64,000 nucleotides of DNA from Aquabacterium humicola (GTDB lineage Bacteria > Pseudomonadota > Gammaproteobacteria > Burkholderiales > Burkholderiaceae_C), in NCBI RefSeq assembly GCF_030167915.1, contig NZ_JARGNB010000001.1, positions 868,001 through 932,000 on the forward strand. The letters run 5' to 3'. Positions 17,100 through 35,608 of the stretch are shown piece by piece (the first letter of the stretch is position 1; the number at the start of each line of letters is the position of its first letter). Made by a program: the position numbers and the translations under genes. The notes under the pieces are model-generated. The model had not been told where the DNA came from. It made no database searches and was given only the letters and a program-made list of their open reading frames with translations.

Positions 17100-18259
17100 C
17101 GCCGCGCCGCGTCGACGATGGCGGCCAGCACGTCCGGCACCTTGGGCTGGGCCGTGTGGCGGTCGATCAGCTCGCCGGTGTCCCACCACACCGGCACCAG
17201 GTCGTGGCGGACGATGGCGCGCGTGATGCTCTGGGCCCAGGCCTTGCGGTAGGGCGCCATGCCCGGGTAGGCCGGCTTCACGTAGGCGCCGTACTCGCCC
17301 ACCAGCACCGCGACCCCGCGGTCCACGAAGTGCGCCTTCAGGCGGCGGAACTGCTCATCGGCCGCGGCTTCGCTGGCCCAGGCCTCGGTGGCGGCGGGGT
17401 CGGTGGCGCCGGCGCCCCACTGCCAGATCTTGCTGTCGCCGTTGAGCGTGAAGTTGTACGGATCGTAGAAGTGCACCTCCATGAACAGGCGGTTGGCGAT
17501 GCGGTCACTGGGCAGGGTGTTGTGGGCCAGCGTGTACGCCACGTTGGTCCAGTAGCCCTGCACGATCAGGTGGCGCGCGGCGTTGTTGCCGCCGGTGGCC
17601 CGCACCGTGTCCACGAAGGTCTGGTTGAAGCTGTTCTGCACCGCGGCGTACTCGGGCGTCGGCCCCTGCCAGGTGCCCTCCTGCCCCACCTCGTTCGTGC
17701 CGGCGAAGAGCAGCCGGTCGTCGAACTCCTGGAAGGCGCGGGCGATCTGGGCCCAGTACGTCGTGATGCGTGCGTTGATCGACGCCTGCTTGTCGTAGGT
17801 CGGGTGGTTCATCCACCCGCCGTCCCAGTGGATGTTGACGATGGCGTAGAGGCCTGCGTCGAGCGCGTGACCGACCACCTGCTTCACATGGGCCATCCAT
17901 GCCGCGCCGATCCGGCCCTGCACGTCGGCGTACTGGGTCCAAGCCACCGGAATGCGCACGCTGCGGAAGCCGGCCGCCTTGTAGGCCTGCATCAGCGCGC
18001 GCGTGGGCGGCGGATTGCCCCAGGACGTGGCCTCGGGAATCGCCTCCAGCGTGTTGCCCAGGTTGATGCCGGGCGACATCTCGCGCGAGATCTGCACGCT
18101 GGTCAGGTTGCGCATGCCCGCGCTGCCGACGGTGCCGGCGCCGGCCTCCGCCGGGCCCGCAGAGCCCGAGCCGTTGCCCGTGCCGCCGCAGCCGGACATC
18201 AGGCCGCCCAGCGCGAGCGGTGCCGTGCCCACGAGGATGGAAAAGCGTCGTCTCTCCAC
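17096..18259 (-). CDS. GH5 endo-glucanase/xyloglucanase, putative lipoprotein
   Basis: Protein of 387 residues. The N-terminus carries a signal with a possible lipobox at LMSGC (Cys24), then a Gly/Ser/Ala-rich linker to about residue 50, then a GH5 barrel beginning INLGNTLEA. The acid/base Glu190 is in GTNE and the nucleophile Glu322 in VGEYGAY. It would cut beta-1,4-glucan or xyloglucan chains at the cell surface. The start is GTG at 18259. Its stop overlaps the GH3 start (ATGA). It follows the TonB receptor gene on the same strand, the usual order for a surface glycan-capture system. The GH5 subfamily is not assigned. Confidence 0.87.
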   Translation of the reverse strand: MERRRFSILVGTAPLALGGLMSGCGGTGNGSGSAGPAEAGAGTVGSAGMRNLTSVQISREMSPGINLGNTLEAIPEATSWGNPPPTRALMQAYKAAGFRSVRIPVAWTQYADVQGRIGAAWMAHVKQVVGHALDAGLYAIVNIHWDGGWMNHPTYDKQASINARITTYWAQIARAFQEFDDRLLFAGTNEVGQEGTWQGPTPEYAAVQNSFNQTFVDTVRATGGNNAARHLIVQGYWTNVAYTLAHNTLPSDRIANRLFMEVHFYDPYNFTLNGDSKIWQWGAGATDPAATEAWASEAAADEQFRRLKAHFVDRGVAVLVGEYGAYVKPAYPGMAPYRKAWAQSITRAIVRHDLVPVWWDTGELIDRHTAQPKVPDVLAAIVDAARR

Positions 18260-18394: not shown

Positions 18395-21157
18395 TCAACG
18401 GAGGGCGTAGCTCACGCTCAGGTAGAACGATCGACCGCGCGGATCGGCGTAGGTCGGGTCGTAGCCGGCCAGGAAGTAGTAGGCCTGGTTCGAGAACGGC
18501 GGCGCCTTGTCGGCCAGGTTCAGGATGCCCGCGCGCAGCTTGAGCTGCTTGTTGACGCTCCAGCTGCCCGTCAGGTCCCACAGCGAGTAGGCCGACACCT
18601 TCCGCGACGGCAGCAGCTTGTCGCTCACCGGGTCGTAGGTCGTGTTCTGGTCGGTGTAGCCGGACGAGTACTGGTTCGCCAGCGTCAGCGAGACGGGGCC
18701 CCGGTCCCAGCCGAACGACAGCCGGTGCCGCCAGCGCTGGATGACCTGGTCGTTGAGGAACACGCCGAGGTTGCTGCGGTACGGCTCCAGCGGGCCGAAC
18801 TGGCGGTCGTACTTCAGCACCACGGTGCCGTTCAGCGCCGCGCTGAAGCGGCCCGCGGCCGTCATGTCGCCGCGCCACTCGGCGCCGAGGTCGACGCCGG
18901 CGGTCTTCAGCCGGCCCTGGTTCTCCTTGCGCAGCAGGATGTTGGTGATGAAGCCGTCGGCATCGCGCTCGATGTAGGTGCCGTTGTACTTCTCGGGGCT
19001 CTCGACGATCACCTGCTCGCCCAGCGTGCTGATCACGTCCTTCTTGTCGATCGCCCACCAGTCGATGCTGACGTTCAAGGTACGCGTCGCCTCGAATACC
19101 AGGCCCAGCGAGACCTGCTGCGACTTCTCCGGCTTCAGGTCCGGATTGCTGCGCCGCTCGACCGGCCACTGGTCGGTGCACAGGTCGATCGATCCCTCCT
19201 GCGCGACGCACTGCGGGTCGGTGAGGAAGCTCGACGCCGAGCCGAAGGTCGTCGGCCGCTTCAGGTCGGCCAGCGACGGCGCCCGGAAGCCGGTGTTCGC
19301 CGACGCCCGCACCAGCAGCGCCTTCGACGGCTGCCAGCGCAGGCCGACCTTGGGGTTGGTGGTGCTGCCGACCTGGCTGTAGCGGTCGTGGCGGATCGCG
19401 AACTGCGCCTCCAGCGACTTCGTGAACGGCGCGACCAGCTCGGCATACACGCCGCGCACCTGGCGGCTGTCGCGCGTGGCGACGATGCCTTCGACGTCGC
19501 CCGAGGCCGAGCGGTCGCCGGCGATGTTGTTCGACAGCAGCAGCGCCGACGGCGTGAAGCTGGTCGTCTCGCGGCGCAGCTCGCCGCCGACCGCCAGCGC
19601 CAGGTCGCCGCCGGCGAGCTGCCCGATCGCCTTCGACAGCTTCAGGTCGACCGCCTCGGTGATGCCCTTGGACTTGCGCGCCTCGTCGTTCACCTTGATC
19701 TGCGCGAGGCGCTCCAGGCCCTCGGCCGACGAGGTGCCGAACGGATTGATCACCCCGCTGCGCACGGCCGCATTGAACTCGTTGAAGAGCACGTAGCCGT
19801 CGACGTACTTGTCCACCGCCCGGTTCTCCGCGCGGCTCAGCGCGGTGTCGTAGTCCCAGCCGGCCACGGTGCCGACCGCGCCGACCACCAGCCGCTGCGC
19901 CTCGCTGGTCACTTCGTTGGTACGGTTGCCCGCCTCGGTCATGCGGTAGCGGATGCCGCTGAACGTGCCGTTGGGGTTCTGCGCCACCAGCACCGAGCGG
20001 TACGGGTCGGGCAGCAGGCTGACGGGCAGGTTGCGGATGCGGATCGGGTTCGGGCTCAGCCGGTAGTCGGTCTTGGCCTGCGCCTGCACGACTTCGGCGA
20101 ACAGCTGGTGGTCGGACGCCAGCTGCCAGGTCGCGCGGCCGACGAAACCGATCTTCTCGGCCTCGGGATAGATCTCGGTGTCCTGCATGTAGTCGTAGCT
20201 GCAGGCGAGCGGGCCGCCCGGCCCCTGCGGCGCATGCACGGTGGCCGGCGGGTTGCAGCCGGGCGCCGACGGGTTCAGCCGCGTGCGCGTGGTGCCGGCC
20301 GGCAGCACGCCGGCGGCGATCAGCGCGTTGCGCTGCGCGCTCGAGATGTCGATGTTCGCCGGCCAGGTGTTCGACGACATCAGCGCCGGCAGTGTGCTGG
20401 CCAGCGCGCGTTCGGCCACCCAGTCGCGCTGCGTCGAGCGCAGGCTGTCGAGCTTCTGCACGTCGATCACGCCGAAGACGTTGAAGCGGTCGCTGGCGAG
20501 ATCGCCGAAGCCGGCGGACAGCGTCGCGGTCTTCTTGCCGGCGCCGCCGTGCTGGGTGTCCGCGAAGGACGCCGCCACCTCGACGCCGCGCCAGTCCTTG
20601 CGCGTGATGAAGTTGATGACGCCGCCGATCGCGTCGGTGCCATAGATCGCCGAAGCGCCGTCCTTCAGCACCTCGACGCGCGCGATCGCGCCGGCGGGAA
20701 TGTTGTTCAGGTCGACGCCCGCGTTGTCGCCGGGCGACGCGAAGTTCGCGAGCCGCCGCCCGTTCAGCAGCACCAGCGTCGACGACACGCCGATGCCGCG
20801 CAGGTTCGCGCCGTTGAAGCCGCGCTGGCCCGAGGTGCCGTCGGTGATGCTGACGCCGTCGGACAGCGGCGCGGTGTTCGCGCTGATCGTCTTCAGCAGC
20901 TCGGCCGCGGTGGTCGCGCCGGTGCGGTCGATGTCCTCGCGCTTGAGCACCTGCACGGGCAGCGCGGTCTCGCCGTCGATGCGCTTGATCGACGAGCCCG
21001 TCACTTCGACGCGCTGCGGCCCGGCCTCCTGCGCGTGCGCGGCGGTCGCCGCCATCGCACAGGCCAGCAGCATCGCGGCCTGCGACGCGGGACGAAGCGG
21101 CCAGCGGCCGCGGTGGAGGGCGAGGCGGCCGGCGGCCGTAGAGGAATGCATGCGCAT
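18395..21157 (-). CDS. TonB-dependent outer-membrane receptor
   Basis: Protein of 920 residues. It has a signal peptide ending near AHAQ (about 43), a short TonB-box-like start (RVEVTGSSI), a plug domain (about 60-175, with LNGRRLA and NNIPAGAIARVEVLKDGASAIYG-type core) and a 22-strand-type barrel to the C-terminus. It belongs to the large-receptor class used for oligosaccharide uptake rather than the typical siderophore group. It is the first gene of the minus-strand hydrolase run, so import of hemicellulose fragments is the likely job. It is also divergent from the cyanophycinase gene, leaving a role in polymer-fragment uptake for that system possible. Confidence 0.9.
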   Translation of the reverse strand: MRMHSSTAAGRLALHRGRWPLRPASQAAMLLACAMAATAAHAQEAGPQRVEVTGSSIKRIDGETALPVQVLKREDIDRTGATTAAELLKTISANTAPLSDGVSITDGTSGQRGFNGANLRGIGVSSTLVLLNGRRLANFASPGDNAGVDLNNIPAGAIARVEVLKDGASAIYGTDAIGGVINFITRKDWRGVEVAASFADTQHGGAGKKTATLSAGFGDLASDRFNVFGVIDVQKLDSLRSTQRDWVAERALASTLPALMSSNTWPANIDISSAQRNALIAAGVLPAGTTRTRLNPSAPGCNPPATVHAPQGPGGPLACSYDYMQDTEIYPEAEKIGFVGRATWQLASDHQLFAEVVQAQAKTDYRLSPNPIRIRNLPVSLLPDPYRSVLVAQNPNGTFSGIRYRMTEAGNRTNEVTSEAQRLVVGAVGTVAGWDYDTALSRAENRAVDKYVDGYVLFNEFNAAVRSGVINPFGTSSAEGLERLAQIKVNDEARKSKGITEAVDLKLSKAIGQLAGGDLALAVGGELRRETTSFTPSALLLSNNIAGDRSASGDVEGIVATRDSRQVRGVYAELVAPFTKSLEAQFAIRHDRYSQVGSTTNPKVGLRWQPSKALLVRASANTGFRAPSLADLKRPTTFGSASSFLTDPQCVAQEGSIDLCTDQWPVERRSNPDLKPEKSQQVSLGLVFEATRTLNVSIDWWAIDKKDVISTLGEQVIVESPEKYNGTYIERDADGFITNILLRKENQGRLKTAGVDLGAEWRGDMTAAGRFSAALNGTVVLKYDRQFGPLEPYRSNLGVFLNDQVIQRWRHRLSFGWDRGPVSLTLANQYSSGYTDQNTTYDPVSDKLLPSRKVSAYSLWDLTGSWSVNKQLKLRAGILNLADKAPPFSNQAYYFLAGYDPTYADPRGRSFYLSVSYALR

Positions 21158-21453: not shown

Positions 21454-22716
21454 ATGACCTTCCTGTCCACCCGCCGCGTTTGGTTCGCGATGCTGCTCGC
21501 GCTGCTCACCAGCGCCTGTGCACTGGCCCAGTCCGACCCATCGAAGCCGGCCGGAGTTGCGGTGCCGATCGGCGGCGCGCTGAAGGTCGACAACGATGCC
21601 GTCTGGTCGCGCCTGGTGCAGCTGACCGGCGGCCCGGGCTCGCGCTGGGTGGTCTTCGCGACGGCCGCCGGCAACCCGGAGAAGTCCGGCGCGCAGATCG
21701 CCGACGCACTGAAGCGCCGCGGCGCGGACGTGCAGGTGATCCCGGTGGCCCCGCGCCTGAAGGGCATCGACCTCGACGCCGAGACGAAGAACCCGCGCTG
21801 GATCGACGCGGTGCGCGCCGCGCGCGGCGTGTACTTCTCCGGCGGCGCGCAGGAGCGCATCGTCGATACGCTGCAGCCGGGCGGCCGGCCCACACCGCTG
21901 CTGCAGGCGGTGTGGGACGTCTACCGCGGCGGCGGCGTGGTGGCCGGCAGCTCGGCCGGTGCCGCCATCATGAGCACGCTGATGTTCCGCGACGCGCAGG
22001 ACGTGATGCGCGTGATGAAGGGCGCGCTCGCCGAGGGCCGGCAGATCGACCGCGGCCTCGGCTTCGTCGGCCCCGATCTCTTCGTCGACCAGCACTTCCT
22101 CAAGCGTGGACGCGTCGGTCGCCTGCTGGCGCTGATGGACGCCAAGGGCTACCGGCTGGGCCTGGGCGTCGACGAGGACTCCGCGGCCATCATCCGCGGC
22201 GACGAGGTCGAGGTGATCGGCGCGAAGGGCGCGCTGCTGGCCGACCTGTCCGAGGCCACCAGCGACCGCGCCCTCGGCGCCTTCAACCTGCGCGGCGCGA
22301 AGCTGAGCTACCTCGATCGCGGCGACCGCGTGAACCTGAGGACACGGGTCGTGACGCCCTCGCCGCAGAAGGCGGCGGACCTGCGCATCGACCCGAACGC
22401 GCCCGGCTTCAAGCCCTACTTCCCCCGCGTGCCCTACCCGCTGGACATGCTCGGCGACACGACGATCGCCAACGCGATGGCGCAGCTGCTGGACAGCCCC
22501 GAGCGCGAGCTGCGCGGGCTGGCGTTCGACGCGCGGCCGCCGGCCGACGATCCGCAGCCGGCGCTCGGCTTCGAGTTCCGCCTCTACAAGGGCGCCGACA
22601 CGCTGGGCTGGTTCACCGGCAGCTTCGGCGGCGAGGACTACACCGTCGCCAACCTGTACCTCGACGTGCTGCCGGTGCGCGTGCAGCAGCCGCTGCACCG
22701 GCCGTGGACACGTTGA
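21454..22716 (+). CDS. Exported cyanophycinase (peptidase family S51)
   Basis: Protein of 420 residues. A signal peptide (hydrophobic 9-24, cleavage near ALAQ at 25/26, with Cys21 as an alternative lipid site) is followed by a cyanophycinase domain. The nucleophile Ser167 lies in GSSAGA, with FSGGAQ near 129 and LFVDQHF downstream as further family motifs. Cyanophycinases cut multi-L-arginyl-poly-L-aspartate to beta-Asp-Arg dipeptides. The signal peptide shows that this one works outside the cytoplasm, on polymer from other cells. It is first in a co-oriented set with an amino-acid ABC importer and a dipeptide-hydrolase candidate. The C-terminal 100 residues extend beyond the small intracellular enzymes. 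Confidence 0.9.
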   Translation: MTFLSTRRVWFAMLLALLTSACALAQSDPSKPAGVAVPIGGALKVDNDAVWSRLVQLTGGPGSRWVVFATAAGNPEKSGAQIADALKRRGADVQVIPVAPRLKGIDLDAETKNPRWIDAVRAARGVYFSGGAQERIVDTLQPGGRPTPLLQAVWDVYRGGGVVAGSSAGAAIMSTLMFRDAQDVMRVMKGALAEGRQIDRGLGFVGPDLFVDQHFLKRGRVGRLLALMDAKGYRLGLGVDEDSAAIIRGDEVEVIGAKGALLADLSEATSDRALGAFNLRGAKLSYLDRGDRVNLRTRVVTPSPQKAADLRIDPNAPGFKPYFPRVPYPLDMLGDTTIANAMAQLLDSPERELRGLAFDARPPADDPQPALGFEFRLYKGADTLGWFTGSFGGEDYTVANLYLDVLPVRVQQPLHRPWTR

Positions 22717-22754
22717 ACCCGCCCCCCTGCCTTCCTGAACCACCGGAGACCCCG

Positions 22755-23543
22755 ATGACCCAACGCCGCCCCCTCGTCAAGATCCTGCTGGCCGGCGCCG
22801 TGCTGCTGGCCGGCAGCGCGTTCGCCCAGCCGTCCAAGCTGCGCCTCGGCGTCGAAGGCGCCTACCCGCCCTTCTCCGAGGTCGGCCCCGACGGCAAGCT
22901 CAAGGGCTTCGACATCGACATCGCGATGGCGCTGTGCGCGGAGATGAAGGTCGAGTGCACGCTGGTGCAGCAGGACTTCGACGGCATGATCCCGGCGCTG
23001 AACGCGAAGAAGTTCGACGCCATCGTCGCGTCGCTGTCGATCACCGACGAGCGCAAGAAGGCCGTGGCCTTCAGCGACAAGTACTACAAGACGCCCAACC
23101 GCATGATCGTGCGCAGCGCGGCGAACCTCACCGTCAGCCCCGAGGGGCTGAAGGGCAAGCGCATCGGCGTGCAGCGCGCGTCGATCAACGACCGCTTCGC
23201 GACCGACACCTTCAAGGGCAGCGAGATCGTGCGTTACGCCAAGCAGGACGAGATCTACCTCGACCTCGCCGCGGGGCGGCTCGACGCGACGCTGGTCGAC
23301 GCGGTGGCCGCCGATGCCGGCTTCCTGAAGAAGCCGCAGGGCAAGGGCTTCGCCTTCGCCGGGCCGGCGTACGTCGAGCCGGCCTACTTCGGCCATGGCG
23401 CGGGCATCGCGGTGCGCAAGACCGACACCGAGCTGGTGCAGCGCCTGAACCGCGCGATCGCGGCGATCCGCTCCAACGGCACCTACCAGCGCATCCAGGA
23501 CAAGTACTTCGACTTCGACATCTACGGCGAGGCGTCGAAGTGA
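22755..23543 (+). CDS. Polar amino-acid/dipeptide ABC transporter, periplasmic binding protein
   Basis: Protein of 262 residues of the family-3 solute-binding proteins (HisJ/ArtJ/LAO type). A Sec signal peptide cleaves near AFAQ (25). The fold motifs EGAYPPFSE, GFDIDIA and DFDGMIPAL, and the ligand-contact region ASLSITDERKKAVAFSD, are present. These proteins bind basic or polar amino acids. It lies 38 bases after the cyanophycinase gene, so the natural ligand is likely beta-Asp-Arg or arginine from the polymer. Two permease genes follow. Confidence 0.9.
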   Translation: MTQRRPLVKILLAGAVLLAGSAFAQPSKLRLGVEGAYPPFSEVGPDGKLKGFDIDIAMALCAEMKVECTLVQQDFDGMIPALNAKKFDAIVASLSITDERKKAVAFSDKYYKTPNRMIVRSAANLTVSPEGLKGKRIGVQRASINDRFATDTFKGSEIVRYAKQDEIYLDLAAGRLDATLVDAVAADAGFLKKPQGKGFAFAGPAYVEPAYFGHGAGIAVRKTDTELVQRLNRAIAAIRSNGTYQRIQDKYFDFDIYGEASK

Positions 23544-23576
23544 CGCGACGCGCGGCCTGAGTCCCCGGACGACGAG

Positions 23577-24263
23577 ATGCTGCACGGCTACGGTTTCGCC
23601 CTGCTCGAAGGCGCCGCGATGACGCTGGCGGTGGCGCTGTGCGCGCTGGCCATCGCGCTGGCGTTCGGCATCGCCGGCGCCAGCGCCGCGCTGTCGCGCC
23701 ACCGCGCCGCGCGCGCGCTCGCCGCCGCGTACACGACGGCGATCCGCGCGGTGCCCGACCTCGTGCTGATGCTGCTGGTGTTCTACGGCGGCCAGATGCT
23801 GGTCAATGACCTGGCCGAGCGCGCCGGGCGCGAACCGGTCGACGTCGACCCCTTCGTCGCCGGCGTCGCGACGATCGGCTTCGTCTTCGGCGCCTACCTC
23901 AGCGAGACCTTCCGCGGCGCCTTCCTGGCGGTGCCGCCCGGCCAGGCCGAGGCGGCACGCGCCTTCGGCTTCACGCGCTGGCAGGTCTTCGCGCGGGTGG
24001 TCGCGCCGCAGATGCTGCGCCACGCGCTGCCGCCGCTGGCCAACAACTGGCTGGTGCTGCTCAAGAGCACGGCGATCGTCTCGGTGATCGGCCTGACCGA
24101 CCTGATGCACCGCGCCGGCCTGGCCGCCGGCGCGACGCGCGAGCCGTTCCTGTTCTATGCCGCGGCGGCGCTGGTGTACCTGGGCTTCACGACACTGTCC
24201 GAGGCCGGCTTCGCGCTGCTGCGCAGGCGGCTCGCGGTCGGCACGCGGCGCACCGACTTCTAA
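23577..24263 (+). CDS. ABC transporter permease, polar amino-acid family (HisQ/ArtQ-like)
   Basis: Protein of 228 residues with about five membrane segments. The cytoplasmic EAA loop is at 118-140 (GQAEAARAFGFTRWQVF). It pairs with the next gene product to form the inner-membrane channel of a family-3 amino-acid importer. It lies 33 bases after the binding protein and 6 bases before the second permease, in a clear operon arrangement. Confidence 0.9.
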   Translation: MLHGYGFALLEGAAMTLAVALCALAIALAFGIAGASAALSRHRAARALAAAYTTAIRAVPDLVLMLLVFYGGQMLVNDLAERAGREPVDVDPFVAGVATIGFVFGAYLSETFRGAFLAVPPGQAEAARAFGFTRWQVFARVVAPQMLRHALPPLANNWLVLLKSTAIVSVIGLTDLMHRAGLAAGATREPFLFYAAAALVYLGFTTLSEAGFALLRRRLAVGTRRTDF

Positions 24264-24269
24264 CCCCCC

Positions 24270-24953
24270 ATGGACGCGGTTCTTCAAAACCTGCCGCTGT
24301 ACGCCAGCGGCCTGTGGACCACGCTGCGCCTGCTGGTCGCGGCGCTGGTGCTGGGCCTCGCGGCGGCGATCCCGCTGGCCGTGCTGCGCTCGCTGCCCTC
24401 GCCGTGGTGCAGCGCGCCGGTGCAGGCCTTCACCTACGTGATCCGCGGCACGCCGATGCTGGTGCAGCTGTTCCTGCTGTACTACGGGCTGGCGCAGTTC
24501 GAGACGGTGCGCGAGAGCGTGCTGTGGCCCTGGCTCAGCTCGGCCTGGTTCTGCGCGATCGCCGCCTTCGCGATCAACACCTGCGCCTACACCACCGAGA
24601 TGCTGCACGGCGCGATCCGCGCGCTGCCCGCCGGCGAGATCGAGGCCGGGCTGGCGTTCGGCATGTCGCGCGGCGTGCTGCTGCGGCGCGTGGTGCTGCC
24701 GTCGGCGCTGCGCCGCTCGCTGCCGGCCTACGGCAACGAGGTGGTGATGATGCTGCACGGCACCTCGCTGGCCAGCGTCGTCACGCTGCTCGACCTGACC
24801 GGCGCCGCGCGCGAGGTCAACTCGCGGCACTACCTGCCCTTTCCCGCCTTCCTCACCGCGGCGCTGATCTACCTGCTGCTGACGATGGTGCTCGTCGCCG
24901 CCTTCCGCGCCGCCGAGCGCCGCTGGCTGCTGCCCACGCAGCCCGGCCGCTGA
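24270..24953 (+). CDS. ABC transporter permease, polar amino-acid family (HisM/ArtM-like)
   Basis: Protein of 227 residues with about five membrane helices. It has the characteristic IRGTPMLVQLFLLYYG stretch and an EAA loop containing GEIEAGLAFGMSRG. It is the second channel subunit of the importer. Only 6 bases separate it from its partner, and 20 bases separate it from the zinc hydrolase gene that follows. Confidence 0.92.
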   Translation: MDAVLQNLPLYASGLWTTLRLLVAALVLGLAAAIPLAVLRSLPSPWCSAPVQAFTYVIRGTPMLVQLFLLYYGLAQFETVRESVLWPWLSSAWFCAIAAFAINTCAYTTEMLHGAIRALPAGEIEAGLAFGMSRGVLLRRVVLPSALRRSLPAYGNEVVMMLHGTSLASVVTLLDLTGAAREVNSRHYLPFPAFLTAALIYLLLTMVLVAAFRAAERRWLLPTQPGR

Positions 24954-24973
24954 GGCGCCGCCGCCCTCCTTCC

Positions 24974-26104
24974 ATGCTGATCCGCCACCATCCACTCCCC
25001 TGCGACGCCCCGGGCACGCAACGCCAGCTGCAGTCGCTGCACTTCGAACCCACCGGGCCGGCATCCGACGCGCCGCCGAAGGTCTACATCCAGGCCTCCC
25101 TGCACGCCGACGAGGTGCCGGCGATGCTCGTCGCGCACCACCTGCGCGAACGCCTCGCCGCCGCCGAGGCCGAAGGGCGCCTGGCCGCCGAGATCACGCT
25201 GGTGCCGATGGCCAACCCGATCGGGCTGTCGCAGCGCCTGCTGCACGGCGCGCAGGGCCGCTTCGACCTGGCCAGCGGCGAGAACTTCAACCGGCATTTC
25301 GCCGACCTCGGCGCGGTGGCCGTGGCCGCCGCGATGGCCGCGGACCTGGCGCACGACCCGCTGCCGCCGCTGCGCCGCGCGCTGCGCCAGGCGGCGGACG
25401 CGCTGCCGGCGCCGACCGAGCTGCAGGCGCTGCGGCGCACGCTGCTGGGCCTGGCCATCGACGCGGACATCGTGCTCGACCTGCACTGCGACAACGAAGC
25501 GGTGCTGCACCTGTACAGCCCGCAGGCGCGCTGGGACGATGCCGAGCCGCTGGCTCGACTGCTCGGCGCCGAGCTGGCGCTGCTGGCGGCCCGTTCCGGC
25601 GGCGATCCGTTCGACGAGGCCTGCTCGTCGCCCTGGCAGGCGGCGGCCGACGCCTGGGCGCAGCGCGGCGGTGCGCCGGTTCGCTGGCCGGGCCTCGCGG
25701 TGACTGTCGAGCTGCGCGGCGAGGCCGACGTCGCCGATGCGCTGGCGCGGCACGACGCCGACGCGCTGATGCGCTTCCTGGCGCACTGCGGCTGCCTCGT
25801 CGGCGACGATGCGGCGCTGCCGCCGCTCAAGCGCGCGCCGCGGCCGCTCGCCGGCTCGATCCCGGTGCTCGCGCCGACCGGCGGCGTGCTGGTGTTCCGC
25901 AGCGAGGTGGGCGACCAGCTCGCCGCCGGCGACACGATCGCCGAGCTCGTCTGTCCGCTGCGCGGCCTCGTGACGCCGGTCACCAGCCCGGTCGACGGCC
26001 TGTTGTACGCCCGCGACCATCGCCGCTACGTGCCCGCCGGCGCGCGCATCGCGAAGGTCGCCGGCACCGAGGCGCGCCGCCACGGCGCGCTGCTCTCCGC
26101 ATGA
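24974..26104 (+). CDS. Zinc hydrolase of the succinylglutamate desuccinylase/aspartoacylase family (candidate beta-Asp-Arg dipeptidase, CphZ-like)
   Basis: Protein of 376 residues, M14-like. Zinc ligands are His44 and Glu47 (ASLHADE) and His171 (DLHCDNE); the catalytic Glu is Glu246 (VTVELRGE); a substrate-binding NFNRHF lies at 104-109. A C-terminal biotinyl/lipoyl-like beta domain (about 290-365) completes the family layout. There is no signal peptide, so it acts in the cytoplasm. It sits between the permease and ATPase genes of the importer and downstream of a cyanophycinase. Its best role is therefore splitting imported beta-Asp-Arg into aspartate and arginine, as known for CphZ-type members. 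Succinylglutamate desuccinylase (AstE) or a general N-acyl deacylase are alternatives; the specific activity is inference from context. Confidence 0.85.
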   Translation: MLIRHHPLPCDAPGTQRQLQSLHFEPTGPASDAPPKVYIQASLHADEVPAMLVAHHLRERLAAAEAEGRLAAEITLVPMANPIGLSQRLLHGAQGRFDLASGENFNRHFADLGAVAVAAAMAADLAHDPLPPLRRALRQAADALPAPTELQALRRTLLGLAIDADIVLDLHCDNEAVLHLYSPQARWDDAEPLARLLGAELALLAARSGGDPFDEACSSPWQAAADAWAQRGGAPVRWPGLAVTVELRGEADVADALARHDADALMRFLAHCGCLVGDDAALPPLKRAPRPLAGSIPVLAPTGGVLVFRSEVGDQLAAGDTIAELVCPLRGLVTPVTSPVDGLLYARDHRRYVPAGARIAKVAGTEARRHGALLSA

Positions 26105-26124
26105 ACCGCAAGGACAATCGCCGC

Positions 26125-26895
<771 letters not shown>

Positions 26896-26987
26896 CACCG
26901 GATGGACGCGGCATGAGCTCGCACGGCCGCCCGAAGGGCGAATCCCCCCTCGGGGGGACGGCGCGCAGCGCGCAGGGGGCGGCATGA
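26896..26987 (+). other. Intergenic repeat-like element with a 24-codon leader frame coupled to the AraC start
   Basis: Between the ATPase stop and the AraC start, the 11-base sequence GCATGAGCTCG occurs twice (26911 and 26982). The first copy opens a 24-codon frame at 26913, whose TGA (26985-26987) overlaps the AraC ATG as ATGA. The DNA between holds GC-rich inverted-repeat sequence (CCCCCCTCGGGGGG and GCGCGCAGCGCGC types) resembling intergenic repeats common in Burkholderiales. It may be a translated leader or simply a repeat insertion that duplicated the start region. Confidence 0.45.
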
Positions 26988-28015
26988 GCTCGGCCCCCCG
27001 GCGCGCCACCTTCGTGCTGCTGCCGCCCGTGTCGCTGCTCGCGCTGGGCGGCGCGCTCGAGGCGCTGAAGGCGGCCAACCAGGCGCTCGGCAGCCGGACC
27101 TATGCGGTGCGGCTGCTGTCGATCGACGGCCGGCCGGTGGCCGACACGATAAGCAGCGAAGTGAGCGTGCAGGGCTCGCTCGACGGCCACGATGTCGCGC
27201 TGGACGACCTGCTGGTGCTGGCCACCGACGCGCCCCCGCTCGACCCGGACGACCGGCTCGGCCCGCTGGGCGGGTTGCTGCGCGCGGCCGCCGCGGCCGG
27301 CCGGACGATCGCCACCCTCGGCAGCGGCGCGGTCTGGGCCGCGCGCTGCGGCGTGCTCGGCGGCTACCGCACCACGCTGCCCTGGCGCGAGGTGCGCGGC
27401 CTGGCCGAACGGCACCTGGATGTCGTCGTCTCGAGCAACGTCTTCGAGATCGACCGCGAGCGCCTCGGCTGCGCCGGCGGCAGCGCGAGCCTGGACATGA
27501 TGATCGCCTGGCTCGGCCGGCGCCACGGCCAGCGCGTGGTGCAGCAGCTGATCGCGCACTTCGGCCTGACGCGCCTGCGCGCCGCCGACGAGCGGCAGCC
27601 GACGCCGAGCGCCGCGCTGCCCGGCACGTCGAGCAAGCTCTCGGAGGCGATCGCGCTGATGGAAGCCAACCTCGGCGAGCCGCTCGCCACCGAGGACATC
27701 GCGCAGCTGGTCGGCGTCTCGCGGCGCCAACTCGAGCGCCTGTTCAAGCAGCACCTGGATGCGCTGCCGTCGCGCTGGTACACCGAGCTGCGGCTCGCGC
27801 AGGCCCGGCGCCTGCTGCAGGAAAGCTCGCAGTCGATCCTGCAGATCGGGCTGGCCTGCGGCTTCTCGTCCGGCCCGCGTTTTTCGAATGCCTACCGCGC
27901 CCACTTCGGGCGCACCCCCCGCGACGAACGCGCCGGCCGCGCCGCCGCGTGGCGGGCGGCCCGTCCGGGCGATGCGGTCCCGGCCGCGGCTTCACCGAGC
28001 GAGGAGGCTCCATGA
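26984..28015 (+). CDS. AraC-family regulator with GATase1-like domain (ArgR type)
   Basis: Protein of 343 residues. The N-terminal domain (about 1-190) is of the DJ-1/class-I glutamine amidotransferase-like kind found in arginine- and carnitine-responsive AraC regulators. A C-terminal double helix-turn-helix (about 215-310) contains LVGVSRRQLERLFK and the motif LQIGLACGFSSGPRFSNAY. The architecture matches Pseudomonas ArgR, which activates arginine uptake and succinyltransferase genes. Its stop overlaps the next start (ATGA). It lies exactly between the uptake and the succinyltransferase genes, so arginine-dependent control of this locus is the natural reading. Confidence 0.9.
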   Translation: MSSAPRRATFVLLPPVSLLALGGALEALKAANQALGSRTYAVRLLSIDGRPVADTISSEVSVQGSLDGHDVALDDLLVLATDAPPLDPDDRLGPLGGLLRAAAAAGRTIATLGSGAVWAARCGVLGGYRTTLPWREVRGLAERHLDVVVSSNVFEIDRERLGCAGGSASLDMMIAWLGRRHGQRVVQQLIAHFGLTRLRAADERQPTPSAALPGTSSKLSEAIALMEANLGEPLATEDIAQLVGVSRRQLERLFKQHLDALPSRWYTELRLAQARRLLQESSQSILQIGLACGFSSGPRFSNAYRAHFGRTPRDERAGRAAAWRAARPGDAVPAAASPSEEAP

Positions 28016-29094
28016 CCCTGTCCGATGTCGACCCGGGCCGCTTCGTGCTGCGGCCCTCCACCCCCGACGACCTGCCGGCGTTCGAGCGCTTCGCGGCCGC
28101 CAGCGCGCACGGCATCACCACGCTGCCGGCGGACCGCCAGAAGCTGGCCGAACGCCTCGACCGCTCGGCGCATGCCTTCGCCACGTCCGACGATGCCAGC
28201 GGCGAGGAGATCTACCTGTTCGTGCTCGAGGACCGCGCGACCGGCGGCATCGTCGGCACCAGCGGCATCGCGGCGAGCGCCGGATTCGCCGACCGCTTCT
28301 ACAGCTACCGCAACGAGTTCATCGTGCATGCGAGCGCGGCGCTGGGCGTGAGCAACCGCATCCACACGCTGCACCTGTGCCACGACCTGACGGACGTGAC
28401 GCTGCTGACGTCCTTCTACATCGAGCCGGCCTACGAGCGCACGCTGGCGCCGCAGCTGCTCTCGCGCGCCCGGCTGCTGTTCATCGGCGCGCACCCCGAA
28501 CGCTTCTCCGACCGCATCGCCGCCGAGAGCCCCGGGCTCGCCGACGACCGCGGGCGCTGCCCGTTCTGGGATGCGGTGGGCCGGCGCTTCTTCGGCGTCG
28601 ACTACCCGGAGATCGAGCGGCTTGCCGGCGGGCGCAGCAAGGCCTTCATCGCCGAGCTGCTGCCGCACTCGCCGGTGTACGTGCCGCTGCTGCCCGAGGA
28701 GGCGCAGTGGGCCATCGGCCAGCTGCATCCGGTGGCCGAGCTGCCGTTCTCGATCCTGCTCGACGAGGGCTTCGATGCCGACACCTACATCGACATCTTC
28801 GACGGCGGCCCGACGGTCGAGGCGCGGCTCGCGATGCTGAAGACCGTGGGGCGCATGCGGCATCGCCAGGCCCTGGTGCTGCGCGAGGGCGCGGCCGCCG
28901 GCGCTGCACCGGGCGCCTGGCAGCTGGTGAGCACCACGCGGCGCGATCACTTCCGCGCCGCGCTGGCGCCCGACGCGGGCGACGCCGGATCGCTGCCCCT
29001 GCCACAGGCCACCGCGGCGCAGCTGGGCGTGCGGGACGACGATGCACTGCTGAGCGCGGCACTCGATGCCGGCGGCCGGCCGGAGGACGAATGA
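28012..29094 (+). CDS. Arginine N-succinyltransferase-like subunit, larger
   Basis: Protein of 360 residues of the AstA/AruF-AruG family with a GNAT-type fold. Recognisable family segments include SYRNEFIVHASAALGVSN, the PFWDAVGRRFF core near 185, AQWAIGQLHP, and the terminal DGGPTVEAR. Arginine N-succinyltransferase moves succinyl from succinyl-CoA to arginine, the first step of the ammonia-producing AST pathway. The ATG at 28012 has GAGGAGG upstream and overlaps the AraC stop. The remaining AST genes (astB, astD, astE) are not in the window. Either arginine itself or the dipeptide could be the true acceptor. Confidence 0.85.
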   Translation: MTLSDVDPGRFVLRPSTPDDLPAFERFAAASAHGITTLPADRQKLAERLDRSAHAFATSDDASGEEIYLFVLEDRATGGIVGTSGIAASAGFADRFYSYRNEFIVHASAALGVSNRIHTLHLCHDLTDVTLLTSFYIEPAYERTLAPQLLSRARLLFIGAHPERFSDRIAAESPGLADDRGRCPFWDAVGRRFFGVDYPEIERLAGGRSKAFIAELLPHSPVYVPLLPEEAQWAIGQLHPVAELPFSILLDEGFDADTYIDIFDGGPTVEARLAMLKTVGRMRHRQALVLREGAAAGAAPGAWQLVSTTRRDHFRAALAPDAGDAGSLPLPQATAAQLGVRDDDALLSAALDAGGRPEDE

Positions 29095-29846
29095 TGCAGA
29101 CCTATCGCCTGCGCGAGGTGCAGCCCGCGGACCTGGACGCCATGGCGCGCTGGCTGCCACCCGATGCCGAGCGCACGCTCCCCGCGCAAGGGGCCGGCGA
29201 ATGGTGGCTCGCGGCGGTCGGACCCGGCGCCGAAACGCCGATCGCCGCGCTGCGCGTGCGCACGGCGCTCGGCCTGGACCGGCCGCGCTACTGGTACCGC
29301 GTCGGCTGCATGGTGCATGCCGCGGCCGAGTTGGGGCTGTTCCAGCGCCAGTCGACCCTGCAGCTGGGCAACGACCACACCGGAGCGGCGGAGCTGGCCG
29401 ACCTGGCCGTCGATGCCGCGCGCCTCGACCACGAGCAGGCCCGGCAGGCGCAGCGGGCGCTGCAGGCCGAGTGCTTGCGAAGACTCCACGCCGAAGCGGC
29501 CGCCGGCCGATGCACGGCCGACACGATCGTCGCGGAACTGCCGGGGCGGCGCGACGCGGCCGGACGCTCGCCGTTCTGGGACGGGCTGGGGCGGCACTTC
29601 CATGCCGGCGATCCGGACGAGGCCCGCGCCCGGTTCGGCGTCGCCTGGCGCACCCAGGTCGCCGCGCTGATGCCCCGCCAGTGCATCTACGTCTCGATGC
29701 TGTCGCCCGATGCCCAGTCGGCGATCGGCCAGGTGGACGCCGGCAGCGCGGCGATCGCCGAGGCGCTCCTGGACAACGGCTTCGCGCGCGGGCACCACGT
29801 GCGCATCGACGACGGCGGGCCGGTGTTCGAGCGGCGGATCGGGTGA
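29091..29846 (+). CDS. Arginine N-succinyltransferase-like subunit, shortened
   Basis: Protein of 251 residues, clearly related to the preceding subunit: YRVGCMVHAAAELGLF, LGNDHTGAAEL, SPFWDGLGRHF, AQSAIGQVDAG and DDGGPVFERR align with family positions. At about 90-110 residues shorter than usual AstA proteins it lacks part of the N-terminal half and the C-terminal tail. It overlaps the larger subunit's stop by ATGA (two adjacent ATG codons at 29091 and 29094). Pseudomonads use two paralogous subunits (AruF/AruG), so a heteromeric enzyme is plausible. It reads intact with normal codon use and does not look like a pseudogene. Confidence 0.8.
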   Translation: MMQTYRLREVQPADLDAMARWLPPDAERTLPAQGAGEWWLAAVGPGAETPIAALRVRTALGLDRPRYWYRVGCMVHAAAELGLFQRQSTLQLGNDHTGAAELADLAVDAARLDHEQARQAQRALQAECLRRLHAEAAAGRCTADTIVAELPGRRDAAGRSPFWDGLGRHFHAGDPDEARARFGVAWRTQVAALMPRQCIYVSMLSPDAQSAIGQVDAGSAAIAEALLDNGFARGHHVRIDDGGPVFERRIG

Positions 29847-30720: not shown

Positions 30721-32028
30721 TCAGGAGGCGACGCCGGCGTAGGGCACCGCCTCGCCGCCATAGCGCCGCACCCGGATGTTGGCCTGCTCGCCATGGGCCA
30801 CCATGCCCTCGATGGCGCACAGCCGCGAGCAATAACGGCCGATCAGCGCGGAGGCTTCGTCGGTCAGCACCTTCTGGTAGGTGCAGGTCTTGATGAACTT
30901 GCCGACCCACAGCCCGCCGGTGTAGCGCGCGGCCTTGCCGGTGGGCAGCGTGTGGTTGGTGCCGATCACCTTGTCGCCGTAGGCGACGTTGGTGCGCGGC
31001 CCCAGGAACAGCGCGCCGTAGTTGCGCATGTGCGCCAGGAAGTAGTCCGGGTCGCGGGTCATCACCTGCACGTGTTCGCTCGCGATGCGGTCGGCTTCGC
31101 GCACCATCTCCTCGTCGCTGTCGCAGACGATCACCTCGCCGTAGTCGCGCCAGGAGACGCCGGCGGTCGCCGCCGTCGGCAGCACCGCCAGCAGCCGCTC
31201 GACCTCGGCCATCGTCTCGCGCGCCAGGCGCTCGCTGGTGGTGAGCAGGATCGCCGGGGTGTTGTAGCCGTGCTCGGCCTGGCCCAGCAGGTCGGTGGCG
31301 CACAGTTCGGCGTCGACCGAGTCGTCGGCGATCACCAGGGTCTCCGAGGGACCCGCCAGCAGGTCGATGCCGACCCGGCCGAACAGCTGGCGCTTGGCCT
31401 CGGCGACGTAGGCATTGCCGGGACCGACCAGCATCGTCACCGGCGCGATCGACGGCGTGCCCAGCGCCATCGCACCGATCGCCTGCACGCCGCCGAGCGT
31501 GTAGATCTCGTCGGCGCCGCCCAGGTGCATCGCCGCCACCACCGCCGGCAGCGCCTGCCCGTTCACCGGCGGCGAACTCGCGACGATTCGGGGCACGCCG
31601 GCCACCTTGGCCGTCACCACGCCCATGTGGGCCGAGGCCACCAGCGGGAACTTGCCGCCGGGCACGTAGCAGGCCACGCTCTCTACGGCCAGGTTGCGGT
31701 GGCCCAGCACCACGCCCGGCAAGGTCTCGACCTCGACGTCGCGCAGCGCCTCCTTCTGCACCTGCGCGAAGTGGCGGATCTGCTGCTGCGCGAAGCGGAT
31801 GTCGTCGAGCTGACCGGGCGTCAGCTGCCGCACGCACGCCTGGATCTCGGCCTCGGACAGCCGGAAGGACTCCGGGCTCCAGCGGTCGTACTTCGCCGAC
31901 AGTTCACGCACCGCGGCATCGCCGCGCGCCTCGATGTCGCGCAGGATGGCGACCACGGTGTCGCGCACGGCCTGCGCGTCGGTGGCGGATTGTTCGGCCG
32001 TGCGGCCGGTCTTCAGGAATCGAACCAT
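30721..32028 (-). CDS. Histidinol-dehydrogenase-family enzyme of an uptake/catabolic operon
   Basis: Protein of 435 residues of the HisD superfamily. It has the typical [13 protein letters not shown], the zinc/catalytic segment [24 protein letters not shown] and the C-terminal TGGLWVGKF region. True HisD takes histidinol to histidine in two NAD-dependent steps. Relatives such as the sulfopropanediol dehydrogenases oxidise a primary alcohol to an acid. This copy is the last gene of a sugar-type ABC transporter operon, 41 bases after a permease gene and far from histidine genes. A catabolic alcohol-to-acid oxidation of the imported compound is therefore more likely than histidine synthesis. Confidence 0.82.
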
Positions 32029-32069
32029 GACAGCTCCTTGAGGAAAACGAACGACCCGCTGCGCCGGTG

Positions 32070-33059
32070 CTAGCGCGGCATGCGCGTGGCATGCACCGCC
32101 GCGGCGAGCAGGATGACCAGGCCCTTGATCACCAGCTGCAGTTCGACCGGCAGGCCGAGCAGCAGCACCAGGTTGAAGAGCACCACCAGGATCAGCGCAC
32201 CCAGCAGCGCACCCAGCACGCTGCCGGCGCCGCCGCCGAGCACGACGCCGCCGATCACGGCCGCGACGATCGAGTCGAGCTCGTAGCCGCGGCCGACCCA
32301 GTTGTCGACCGTGCCGACGTAGCCGATCAGCACCAGCCCGGCCAGGCCCGACAGCAGCGCGCCCAGGACATAACACGCGATGGTGACGGCGCCGGCGTCG
32401 ATGCCCACCAGCGCCGCCGCGCGCGGGTTGGTGCCGGTGACGTAGATCCGGCGGCCGAAGGTCGTGCGGTGCAGCAGCAGCACCAGCGCGACCGACACCG
32501 CCGCCACCAGCAGCAGCGACACGGGCACGCCGACCAGCGTGCCGGTGCCCAGCAGGCGCAGCGCGGGCGGCAGCTCGCCCGAAGGCGCGCCCTTCGTGTA
32601 CGCGAACCGCGCCCCCTGCAGCACGATCATCATCGCCAGCGTCGCCAGGAACGGGCTGACACCGCGCCGCACCACCAGCCAGCCATTGGCCCAGCCCACC
32701 GCGGCAGCCAGCGCCAGCGTGGCCGCGCAGATCGGCAGCGTCATCGCGTTGGACGTGGTCTCGAAGGCCGTCGCGGCCACCGCGACGGTGGCCATCAGCG
32801 ACCCCACCGACAGGTCCAGCCCGCGGGCCAGGATCACCAGCATCTGGCCCAGCACCGCCAGGCACAGCGGGGCCGCCTGCACCGCCAGGTTGCCCAGGTT
32901 GCCGGCGCCCAGGAACGCCGGCGACAGCCAGCCGGCCACGCCGACCAGCAGCGCCAGCACGCCGCCCAGCAGCCAGACCTCGCGTGCCAGCACGGGGTTG
33001 TCGCGACCGGACTCGCGCGGGGCCGCGGATGCCAACATGCGAAGTGCGCGGGTGTTCAC
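32070..33059 (-). CDS. Sugar ABC transporter permease (RbsC-like), second
   Basis: Protein of 329 residues with about nine hydrophobic segments. It has the RbsC/AraH-type motif [13 protein letters not shown] near 80 and a [23 protein letters not shown] stretch split by the usual loop near 265. The start is GTG at 33059, with GGAGG upstream; an ATG 7 codons later is possible. It lies 13 bases after the other permease gene. The pair probably forms a heterodimeric channel for the operon's unknown substrate. Confidence 0.88.
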
Positions 33060-33072
33060 GATCCGTTCCTCC

Positions 33073-34023
33073 TCAGGCGCCGTGCCCGCGCCGGCGCTGG
33101 AACAGCACCGCGGCGATGATGATCAGGCCCTGGATCGTCCACTGCAGGAAGGTGGAGACGTTCATGTAGTTCAGCACGTTGCCCAGCAGCACCAGCATGA
33201 ACACGCCCAGCAGCGTGCCCAGCACGCCGCCCTTGCCGCCGCCCAGCAGCGTGCCGCCGATCACCACCGGGGTGATCGAGGCCAGCGTCAGCGGCTCGCC
33301 GACCAGCGGGTCGCCGGTGCCGGTGCGCGCCACCAGCACCACCGCGGCGCAGCCGGCGCACAGGCCGCTCAGCGTGAACGCGATCACCGTCGCGCGGCCG
33401 GCGCCGAGGCCGGTCACGCGGGCCGCCTCGGGCTGCCCGCCCGCGGCCAGCAGGCGCAGGCCGCCCGGCGCATGGCGCAGCCACACGCCCAGCGCGGCGA
33501 AGGCGGCCAGCATGCCGAGCCCGGCGTACGACCAGCCGGCCCACTGGCCGTAGGCGATCTCCTGCACCCACGCCGGCACGCTGCCGGCGGGCTGGCGCGT
33601 CACCATCAGCGTCAGGCCGTTGAGCAGCGCCGCCATGCCGATGGTGACCACCAGCGCATGCAGCCGCAGCAGCAGGATCAGCGCCGCGTTCAGCGCGCCG
33701 ATGCCGGCGCCGGCGGCCAGGGTGCCGGCAAGCAGCCAGCCGGCGGCGTCCGGATGGCGCTCCGCCTGCGTGGCGAAGAGCACGCCCAGCGCGCTGACCA
33801 GCGCACCCACCGCGAGGTCGATGCCGCCGGCCAGCACCACGACGGTCTGGCCCAGGCTGACCAGCCCGACCGCCACCGACTGCTCCAGCAGGTTCGACAG
33901 GTTGCCGGTGGTGGCGAAGGCATCGTTGACCGCCACGCCGCAGAGGGCGAGCGCCAGCGACAGCGCCAGCACCACCAGGTGCGAAGGGTCGATGCGGTGC
34001 AGGGCACGAACGGCGAGGCTCAT
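33073..34023 (-). CDS. Sugar ABC transporter permease (RbsC-like), first
   Basis: Protein of 316 residues with about eight to ten membrane segments and the family motif VVLAGGIDLAVGALVS near 65. The C-terminal region contains VVIGGTLLGGGKGG and a final basic tail. It follows the ATPase gene by 10 bases and precedes the second permease gene by 13 bases. Together they form the membrane part of a CUT2-class importer. Confidence 0.9.
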   Translation of the reverse strand: MSLAVRALHRIDPSHLVVLALSLALALCGVAVNDAFATTGNLSNLLEQSVAVGLVSLGQTVVVLAGGIDLAVGALVSALGVLFATQAERHPDAAGWLLAGTLAAGAGIGALNAALILLLRLHALVVTIGMAALLNGLTLMVTRQPAGSVPAWVQEIAYGQWAGWSYAGLGMLAAFAALGVWLRHAPGGLRLLAAGGQPEAARVTGLGAGRATVIAFTLSGLCAGCAAVVLVARTGTGDPLVGEPLTLASITPVVIGGTLLGGGKGGVLGTLLGVFMLVLLGNVLNYMNVSTFLQWTIQGLIIIAAVLFQRRRGHGA

Positions 34024-34033
34024 GGGGGTCTCC

Positions 34034-35548
<1,515 letters not shown>

Positions 35549-35608
35549 CGCCTGACTCCCGAAGTGCTCGTGCCCGCGCCCATGTCCGACATGCCCGTCA
35601 CCGTGGCG

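What the first reader, a model, noticed from the sequence alone, without database searches (positions are those of the whole stretch)
21454..29846. Compact locus that appears to eat external cyanophycin and channel its arginine into succinylation
Seen: exported S51 cyanophycinase, family-3 solute-binding protein, two permeases, an M14-like zinc hydrolase with intact ligands placed between permease and ATPase genes, an AraC regulator with a GATase1-like domain, and two AstA-type subunits, all on one strand with short gaps or ATGA overlaps. Known: cyanophycinase yields beta-Asp-Arg; CphZ-type relatives of this hydrolase family split that dipeptide; ArgR-type AraC proteins sense arginine; AstA succinylates arginine. 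Inference: the importer takes up the dipeptide intact, and the locus is a full polymer-to-succinylarginine route. No cyanophycin synthetase, IadA or IaaA is present here, which fits scavenging rather than storage.
Basis: partly seen in the sequence, partly recalled or inferred. Interest (0 to 1): 0.85.

Follow-up and report, generated by a model that had tools for sequence, protein, structure and literature searches.

The report
Cyanophycin-scavenging locus with orphan AstA pair
A bacterium related to Roseateles carries a compact gene set that looks made for eating cyanophycin, the nitrogen-storage polymer of cyanobacteria; most of it follows a known plan, but it ends in two succinyltransferase-like genes whose usual follow-on enzymes were not found in the genome.

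Summary
The nine genes are real, intact and in the stated order. The core is a known kind: an exported S51 cyanophycinase (CphE-like) and an aotJQMOP-argR-type operon with a CphZ-type hydrolase. Three things change the reading. (1) The locus is larger: a divergent TonB-dependent receptor (18395-21157, minus strand) belongs to it; it is in 28 of 28 loci examined that carry this AstA pair (27 distinct). (2) Succinylation is not shown to be a route: AstB and AstE, steps 2 and 5 of the AST pathway, were not found in this genome. AstB was found in 0 of 25 distinct genomes with this AstA pair and in 7 of 7 with an ordinary AruF/AruG pair, once split in two pieces. (3) The pair is a separate subfamily: AstA1 forms one clade beside AruF, AstA2 is divergent. 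Among 150 family genomes all 16 carriers also have CphZ, and 18 of 19 pairs lie within 4 kb of it. Best explanation: a cyanophycin-scavenging locus with TonB and ABC uptake, CphZ cleavage, and an orphan acyltransferase acting outside the AST pathway. New variant of a known kind.

The parts
18395..21157 (-).
   Evidence: Plug and TonB_dep_Rec_b-barrel; 47-72% identical over about 875-945 aa to receptors in other CphZ/cyanophycinase loci (two further hits, L062 and L074, are short fragments), but at most 38% to any paralogue in its own genome
21454..22716 (+). exported S51 cyanophycinase, CphE-like, 420 aa, with about 150 aa beyond the cyanophycinase model
   Evidence: Peptidase_S51 34.3 bits, cut-off 23.9; TIGR02069 126.4 bits, cut-off 126.6; best PDB matches 7uqv, 3en0, 7uqw, named cyanophycinase; GSSAGA at 165, DQHF at 212; signal-like N-terminus by eye
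22755..23543 (+). family-3 solute-binding protein, AotJ/ArgT type
   Evidence: TIGR01096 272.2 bits, cut-off 256.35; E11, A69, Q117 in ArgT numbering
23577..24263 (+). ABC permease, HisQ/AotQ-like
   Evidence: BPD_transp_1; best NCBIfam HisQ, 259.7 bits, below its cut-off 319
24270..24953 (+). ABC permease, HisM/AotM-like
   Evidence: BPD_transp_1; best NCBIfam HisM, 233.5 bits, below its cut-off 306
24974..26104 (+). CphZ-type zinc hydrolase (AotO position), predicted beta-Asp-Arg dipeptidase, no visible signal peptide
   Evidence: AstE_AspA_cat; best PDB 8ein/8eip, E 3.7e-58 and 2.2e-57; keeps 64 of 65 columns that are near-invariant in 98 family rows including itself
26101..26895 (+). ABC ATPase, HisP/AotP-like (start may be 26126)
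   Evidence: ABC_tran; HisP 388.8 bits, below its cut-off 466
26984..28015 (+). AraC-family regulator with GATase1-like N-terminal domain, in the ArgR position
   Evidence: HTH_18; 3gra and 3oio; best NCBIfam GbdR, 229.7 bits, below its cut-off 480; present in 28 of 28 AstA-pair loci
28012..29094 (+). AstA1: AruF-related acyltransferase of the cyanophycin-linked subfamily
   Evidence: AstA 355.9 bits; TIGR03245 394.5 bits, cut-off 458.8; PDB 1yle, E 8.9e-93; clade support 100/99
29091..29846 (+). AstA2: short, divergent AstA-type partner subunit, probably non-catalytic
   Evidence: AstA 134.5 bits over profile positions 76-263 of 337; AF2 model mean pLDDT 90.1, best PDB match 1yle; its subfamily keeps on average 0.50 of canonical invariant columns against 0.90 for AstA1's

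Best explanation
A locus for scavenging cyanophycin made by other organisms. The TonB-dependent receptor binds or imports cyanophycin fragments at the outer membrane (inferred). The exported cyanophycinase cuts the polymer to beta-Asp-Arg (family knowledge). The AotJQMP-type ABC importer, or a DcuC-family permease in relatives, brings the dipeptide, and probably also free Arg, into the cytoplasm (inferred). The CphZ-type hydrolase splits it to Asp and Arg (homology). The AraC/ArgR-type protein switches the locus on in response to Arg or the dipeptide (inferred). The AstA1/AstA2 pair descends from AruF/AruG-type proteins but has left the AST pathway: AstA1 probably still acylates arginine, or the dipeptide, on the alpha-amine, with AstA2 as a non-catalytic partner. 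Its product does not go through AstB and AstE and most likely controls or buffers the arginine pool. This last step is a guess.
For: Domain and PDB matches. The window order matches Pseudomonas SBP-PermQ-PermM-CphZ-ATPase-AraC loci that lie near aru genes (L193, L195). TonB receptor: in 31 of 38 loci with a cyanophycinase and 1 of 28 without, among the 66 of 80 loci held at 16 kb or more (Fisher 5e-11, related genomes, so only a guide). AstA pair: 28 of 28 loci have the receptor and AraC, 27 CphZ, 26 an S51 gene; L073 and L173 are one locus, so 27 distinct. AstA in 16 of 150 family genomes, CphZ in 47 of 150, all 16 overlap; AstB in 0 of 150. No cyanophycin synthetase over the cut-off.
Against: No activity or substrate was tested. 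The SBP pocket resembles AotJ, which binds free Arg, so the ABC system may import Arg rather than the dipeptide. The genome also has an IaaA-type gene, which could split beta-Asp-Arg. The cyanophycinase falls just under the TIGR02069 cut-off. 7 of 38 long loci with a cyanophycinase lack the receptor. L166, same genus, and L023 have the receptor and AstA pair but no S51 hit; L166 also has a different SBP pocket. Many CphZ loci lack the AstA pair (31 of 47 CphZ genomes), so the pair is an add-on, not essential.
Confidence: 0.72

Rival explanations
1. One reading: AstA1/AstA2 start ordinary AST catabolism of the arginine, with the remaining enzymes encoded elsewhere.
For: AstA1's subfamily keeps 0.90 of canonical invariant columns and lies beside AruF in the tree.
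Against: No AstB in this genome, in any of 150 family genomes, or in the 9 further genomes with this pair reached by handles; no AstE match over 29 bits in 19 of 19 tested, while 7 of 7 ordinary-pair genomes have AstB and AstE. AstC and AstD were not searched genome-wide.
Confidence: 0.1
2. An arginine uptake operon (aot) whose real substrate is free arginine; the cyanophycinase is a side activity on other isopeptides.
For: TIGR01096 match; AotJ-type pocket; AotJ binds Arg, not ornithine (PMC6829864, passages).
Against: Cyanophycinase, TonB receptor and CphZ are repeatedly linked, and a DcuC-family permease takes the place of the ABC genes in many of the same loci.
Confidence: 0.2
3. The hydrolase is the missing succinylglutamate desuccinylase (AstE) rather than CphZ.
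For: The Pfam family covers AstE; AstE is otherwise not found.
Against: Best PDB matches are 8ein/8eip at 201 and 198.5 bits, with 3fmc and 3lwu at 99.7 and 89. Genomes G017 and G018 have a true AstE and also a CphZ-type gene. AstE without AstB would have no substrate.
Confidence: 0.05
4. AstA1/AstA2 is decaying baggage of an ancestral aot-argR-aru cluster without a present function.
For: AstA2 is divergent and fast-evolving.
Against: Both genes are recognisable and adjacent in 28 of 28 loci, including Xanthomonadales, and AstA1 is well conserved. Three second-subunit matches carry one stop flag in the raw search (G014, G053, G085), but the frames there give proteins of ordinary length, 241-247 aa.
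Confidence: 0.15

Closest known systems
aotJQMOP-argR operon of Pseudomonas, with a CphZ-type gene in the O position (operon name recalled; aotJQMP and aruCFGDBE named in PMC8871633, passages)
   Same: Gene order SBP, permease, permease, CphZ-type hydrolase, ATPase, AraC regulator in L193 and L195; SBP pocket E11/Q117/R118
   Different: Window adds a cyanophycinase and TonB receptor upstream and an AstA pair downstream; SBP has A69 instead of S69
CphE extracellular cyanophycinase (P. anguilliseptica, Obst et al. 2002; cited in PMC10206079, passages)
   Same: S51 family, exported by eye, catalytic Ser and His motifs; similar length (recalled)
   Different: Just below the TIGR02069 cut-off; activity untested; placed at the head of an uptake operon
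CphZ, cyanophycin dipeptide hydrolase (Sharon et al. 2023, doi 10.1073/pnas.2216547120; paper not held, known by recall and by citation in PMC10206079)
   Same: Best PDB matches 8ein/8eip (that these are CphZ is recalled), zinc ligands and family columns kept
   Different: Linked to an AstA pair; activity untested
AruF/AruG arginine succinyltransferase of the AST pathway
   Same: Two adjacent AstA-family genes near an ArgR-type regulator
   Different: Separate clade, divergent second subunit, no AstB or AstE found in the genome, no AstC or AstD in the locus
TonB-dependent transporter beside a cyanophycinase in Citromicrobium sp. JLT1363 (PMC3400609, passages)
   Same: Same pairing, with cyanophycin proposed as substrate in 2012
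   Different: Here the linkage is counted over many Burkholderiales and some Xanthomonadales loci, together with CphZ

Membership tests
CphE cyanophycinase | Peptidase S51 family | tested here: met
   34.3 bits over cut-off 23.9
CphE cyanophycinase | NCBIfam cyanophycinase equivalog score | tested here: inconclusive
   126.4 bits against 126.6
CphE cyanophycinase | Nucleophile Ser motif and DQHF motif | tested here: met
   GSSAGA 165, DQHF 212; aligned with 7uqv and 3en0
CphE cyanophycinase | Export signal | tested here: inconclusive
   Hydrophobic N-terminus by eye; no signal-peptide program at hand; no strict lipobox in the window protein
CphE cyanophycinase | Releases beta-Asp-Arg from cyanophycin | not testable with these tools
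   needs assay
CphZ | Closer to 8ein/8eip than to other solved AstE/AspA-family proteins | tested here: met
   201 bits to 8ein, 99.7 to 3fmc
CphZ | Zinc ligands and catalytic Glu | tested here: met
   H44, E47, H171, E246; E246 aligns with the Glu that is Ala in 8eip
CphZ | Specific hydrolysis of beta-Asp-Arg | not testable with these tools
   needs assay
aotJQMOP-argR operon | Gene order J-Q-M-O-P-argR | tested here: met
   same order in 2 of the 6 aru regions fetched (L193, L195); L192 has it without the CphZ gene; L194, L196 and L197 show no aot genes in the stretch held
AST pathway | AstB succinylarginine dihydrolase in the genome | tested here: not met
   0 matches
AST pathway | AstE succinylglutamate desuccinylase in the genome | tested here: not met
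   best 21.5 bits against cut-off 305.65
AST pathway | AstC and AstD | not tested
   no hit in the locus; not searched genome-wide
AruF/AruG succinyltransferase | Two full-length subunits | tested here: not met
   AstA2 is 251 aa and matches profile positions 76-263 of 337
TonB-dependent receptor | Plug and beta-barrel domains | tested here: met

The most novel reading that the evidence does not exclude
The AraC-AstA1-AstA2 trio is a dedicated cyanophycin-catabolism module: an acyltransferase descended from arginine succinyltransferase that works without the AST pathway, acting on arginine or on beta-Asp-Arg, so that its acylated product is a signal, a buffer, or the first step of an arginine route not yet described.
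Probability: 0.35. Interest if true: 0.65.

Novelty: new variant of a known kind. Interest (0 to 1): 0.5.

Why it matters
The locus suggests how heterotrophs may capture cyanophycin with a polymer-utilisation-like set: outer-membrane receptor, exported depolymerase, importer, cytoplasmic dipeptidase. The close link to an AstA pair in genomes where AstB and AstE were not found poses a defined question: what does an arginine succinyltransferase do when the rest of its pathway is gone? An annotation by gene family would name this AST arginine catabolism and would probably be wrong about the pathway.

Tried and rejected
Considered and rejected: cyanophycin synthetase elsewhere in the genome (12 low-scoring matches, none over the cut-off; several lie within 10 kb on one contig, which looks like a mur cluster, not checked); IadA (at most 22.3 bits). 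A CphZ motif written as a regular expression was too strict and matched 0 of 97 loci; replaced by an alignment. The first SBP numbering was shifted and redone. I first took nine Pseudomonas loci (L024, L026, L029-L032, L034, L035, L047) for aot operons; they show no AraC hit and a different SBP pocket, so they are a paralogous set, and aru regions with their neighbours were fetched instead. Promoter and terminator scans gave nothing above shuffles; tandem repeats nothing relevant. Rows dropped: AstA2 rows of L072 and L176 that fell on the AstA1 frame, and two duplicate rows of L173. The AstA2 rows have long branches, so their inner order is unsure. Against uniform degeneration of AstA2: the second subunit of G110 still matches profile 31-335 at 201 bits, and those of L018 and L177 are over 310 aa as called. 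L110 (Inhella) holds the pair, AraC and CphZ but only 3.9 kb, so it is not among the 28.
Full report
The observation. Family scans give Peptidase_S51, SBP_bac_3, two BPD_transp_1 permeases, AstE_AspA_cat, ABC_tran, an AraC regulator and two AstA proteins. The N-terminal part of the regulator matches 3gra.

The core is a known plan. The hydrolase's best solved relatives are 8ein and 8eip (E 3.7e-58 and 2.2e-57), well above 3fmc and 3lwu. That 8ein and 8eip are CphZ is recalled; the molecule name shown is succinylglutamate desuccinylase. PMC10206079 (passages; [quoted passage not shown] 2023, which is not held. The window protein keeps 64 of the 65 columns that are near-invariant over 98 rows. 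Of six aru regions fetched, L193 and L195 (Pseudomonas) show SBP-PermQ-PermM-CphZ-ATPase-AraC with aru genes about 4-5 kb away; L192 shows the same without a CphZ hit, joined to aru; L194, L196 and L197 show no aot genes in the stretch held. The window operon is therefore of the aotJQMOP-argR type. From recall, the 2023 paper linked the Pseudomonas aot operon to beta-Asp-Arg use; I could not check this.

The binding protein. It scores above the cut-off of the Lys/Arg/Orn family. In ArgT numbering, 12 of 24 SBPs from the window and CphZ loci have E11, A69 and Q117, where ArgT has D11, S69 and L117; 11 of the 12 lie beside a cyanophycinase (L016 does not). The other 12 (L166, L033, L042 and nine Pseudomonas) differ at one or more of the three. 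Three aot-linked Pseudomonas SBPs have E11, Q117 and S69. That these positions line the ligand pocket is recalled. P. aeruginosa AotJ binds L-Arg with KD 0.12 uM and not ornithine (PMC6829864, passages). So the pocket is AotJ-like and does not by itself show dipeptide binding. L169, L174 and L181 have ABC genes but no SBP hit.

The TonB-dependent receptor. The gene at 18395-21157, minus strand, has plug and barrel domains. Its closest own-genome paralogue is 38% identical, whereas receptors in cyanophycinase or AstA-pair loci of other genera, Xanthomonadales included, are 47-72% identical. Of the 80 CphZ loci kept (of 235 confirmed), 66 are held at 16 kb or more: the receptor is in 31 of 38 with a cyanophycinase and 1 of 28 without (Fisher 5e-11; the genomes are related, so this is a guide). 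A TonB transporter beside a cyanophycinase was already noted in Citromicrobium (PMC3400609, passages).

The importer slot. Among the 28 AstA-pair loci, 12 have the ABC ATPase and 12 a DcuC-family permease (Pfam of three such permeases; the one in L076 is on the other strand), which fits a need for import of the cyanophycinase product. L178, L182, L183 and L023 show neither an ATPase nor a DcuC hit.

The AstA pair. AstA (PF04958) occurs in 16 of 150 family genomes, CphZ in 47 of 150, and all 16 carriers have CphZ (Fisher 1.1e-9, related genomes). Of 19 pairs, 18 lie within 4 kb of CphZ; the exception, in G112, still sits beside a receptor, a cyanophycinase and the AraC gene (L182). The 28 loci examined are the 19 family pairs including the window and 9 of the 10 AstA-bearing loci; the tenth, L069, is an ordinary aru locus. 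L073 and L173 are the same locus. None of the 28 has an AstB, AstC, AstD or AstE hit in the stretch held. CphZ also occurs without the pair in 31 family genomes.

No AST pathway found. AstB: 0 of 150 family genomes, and none in the 11 genomes with this pair reached by handles, two of which repeat family genomes by coordinates, giving 25 distinct genomes; the 7 genomes with an ordinary pair all have it, in G017 as two adjacent pieces each below the cut-off. The other 6 of the 24 handle genomes have no AstA match and no AstB. AstE: no match above 29 bits in 19 of 19 cyanophycin-type genomes, 274-399 bits in 7 of 7 ordinary ones, of which 3 pass the curated cut-off.

Subfamily. In a maximum-likelihood tree of 67 rows the cyanophycin-linked AstA1 proteins are one clade (100/99) beside AruF, and the AstA2 proteins are one side of a branch (100/99) with long ends. 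Of 60 columns invariant in all or all but one of 15 ordinary rows, AstA1 rows keep 0.90 on average and AstA2 rows 0.50. The AstA2 model is confident (pLDDT 90.1) and its best PDB match is 1yle, the AruF structure. AstA1 is therefore probably still an acyltransferase and AstA2 a structural partner; both are inference. The G110 second subunit is less degenerate (201 bits).

Genome context. No cyanophycin synthetase over the cut-off, no IadA over the cut-off, but one IaaA-type gene elsewhere. Two genomes of the same family carry contigs whose lengths equal those of Roseateles asaccharophilus and Pelomonas sp. V22, so the window is from Burkholderiales near Roseateles (inference).

In print. The searches 'cyanophycinase' with 'succinyltransferase' (one paper, listing only) and 'cyanophycin' with 'arginine succinyltransferase' (two papers, listing only) showed no title or abstract on this linkage; I did not read those three papers, and the library lacks most subscription papers.

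Noticed in passing
G000:C12:462622-463545 (locus L010): An IaaA-type (Asparaginase_2) gene elsewhere in the genome lies beside stretches that match the window's ABC ATPase (53%) and permease (36%) queries; it could be a second beta-aspartyl dipeptide route.
   Followed up: partly
window 26896-26983: The gap between ATPase and AraC genes holds a GC-rich, partly palindromic stretch; the three cores tested occur once in this window.
   Followed up: partly
window 14421-18259, minus strand: A family 3 glycoside hydrolase and a family 5 cellulase lie just beyond the TonB receptor.
   Followed up: no
window 30721-36760, minus strand: A histidinol-dehydrogenase-family gene beside an ABC transporter of the BPD_transp_2 / Peripla_BP_4 kind.
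   Followed up: no
L019:11996-13663: A divergent S51 protein (556 aa, 25.2 bits to Peptidase_S51) beside a DcuC-family permease downstream of the AstA pair in a Xanthomonadales MAG, possibly a replacement cyanophycinase.
   Followed up: partly
L024, L026, L029-L032, L034, L035, L047: Nine Pseudomonas loci carry an SBP-permease-permease-CphZ-ATPase operon without an AraC hit and with a different SBP pocket (D11, S69, E117).
   Followed up: partly
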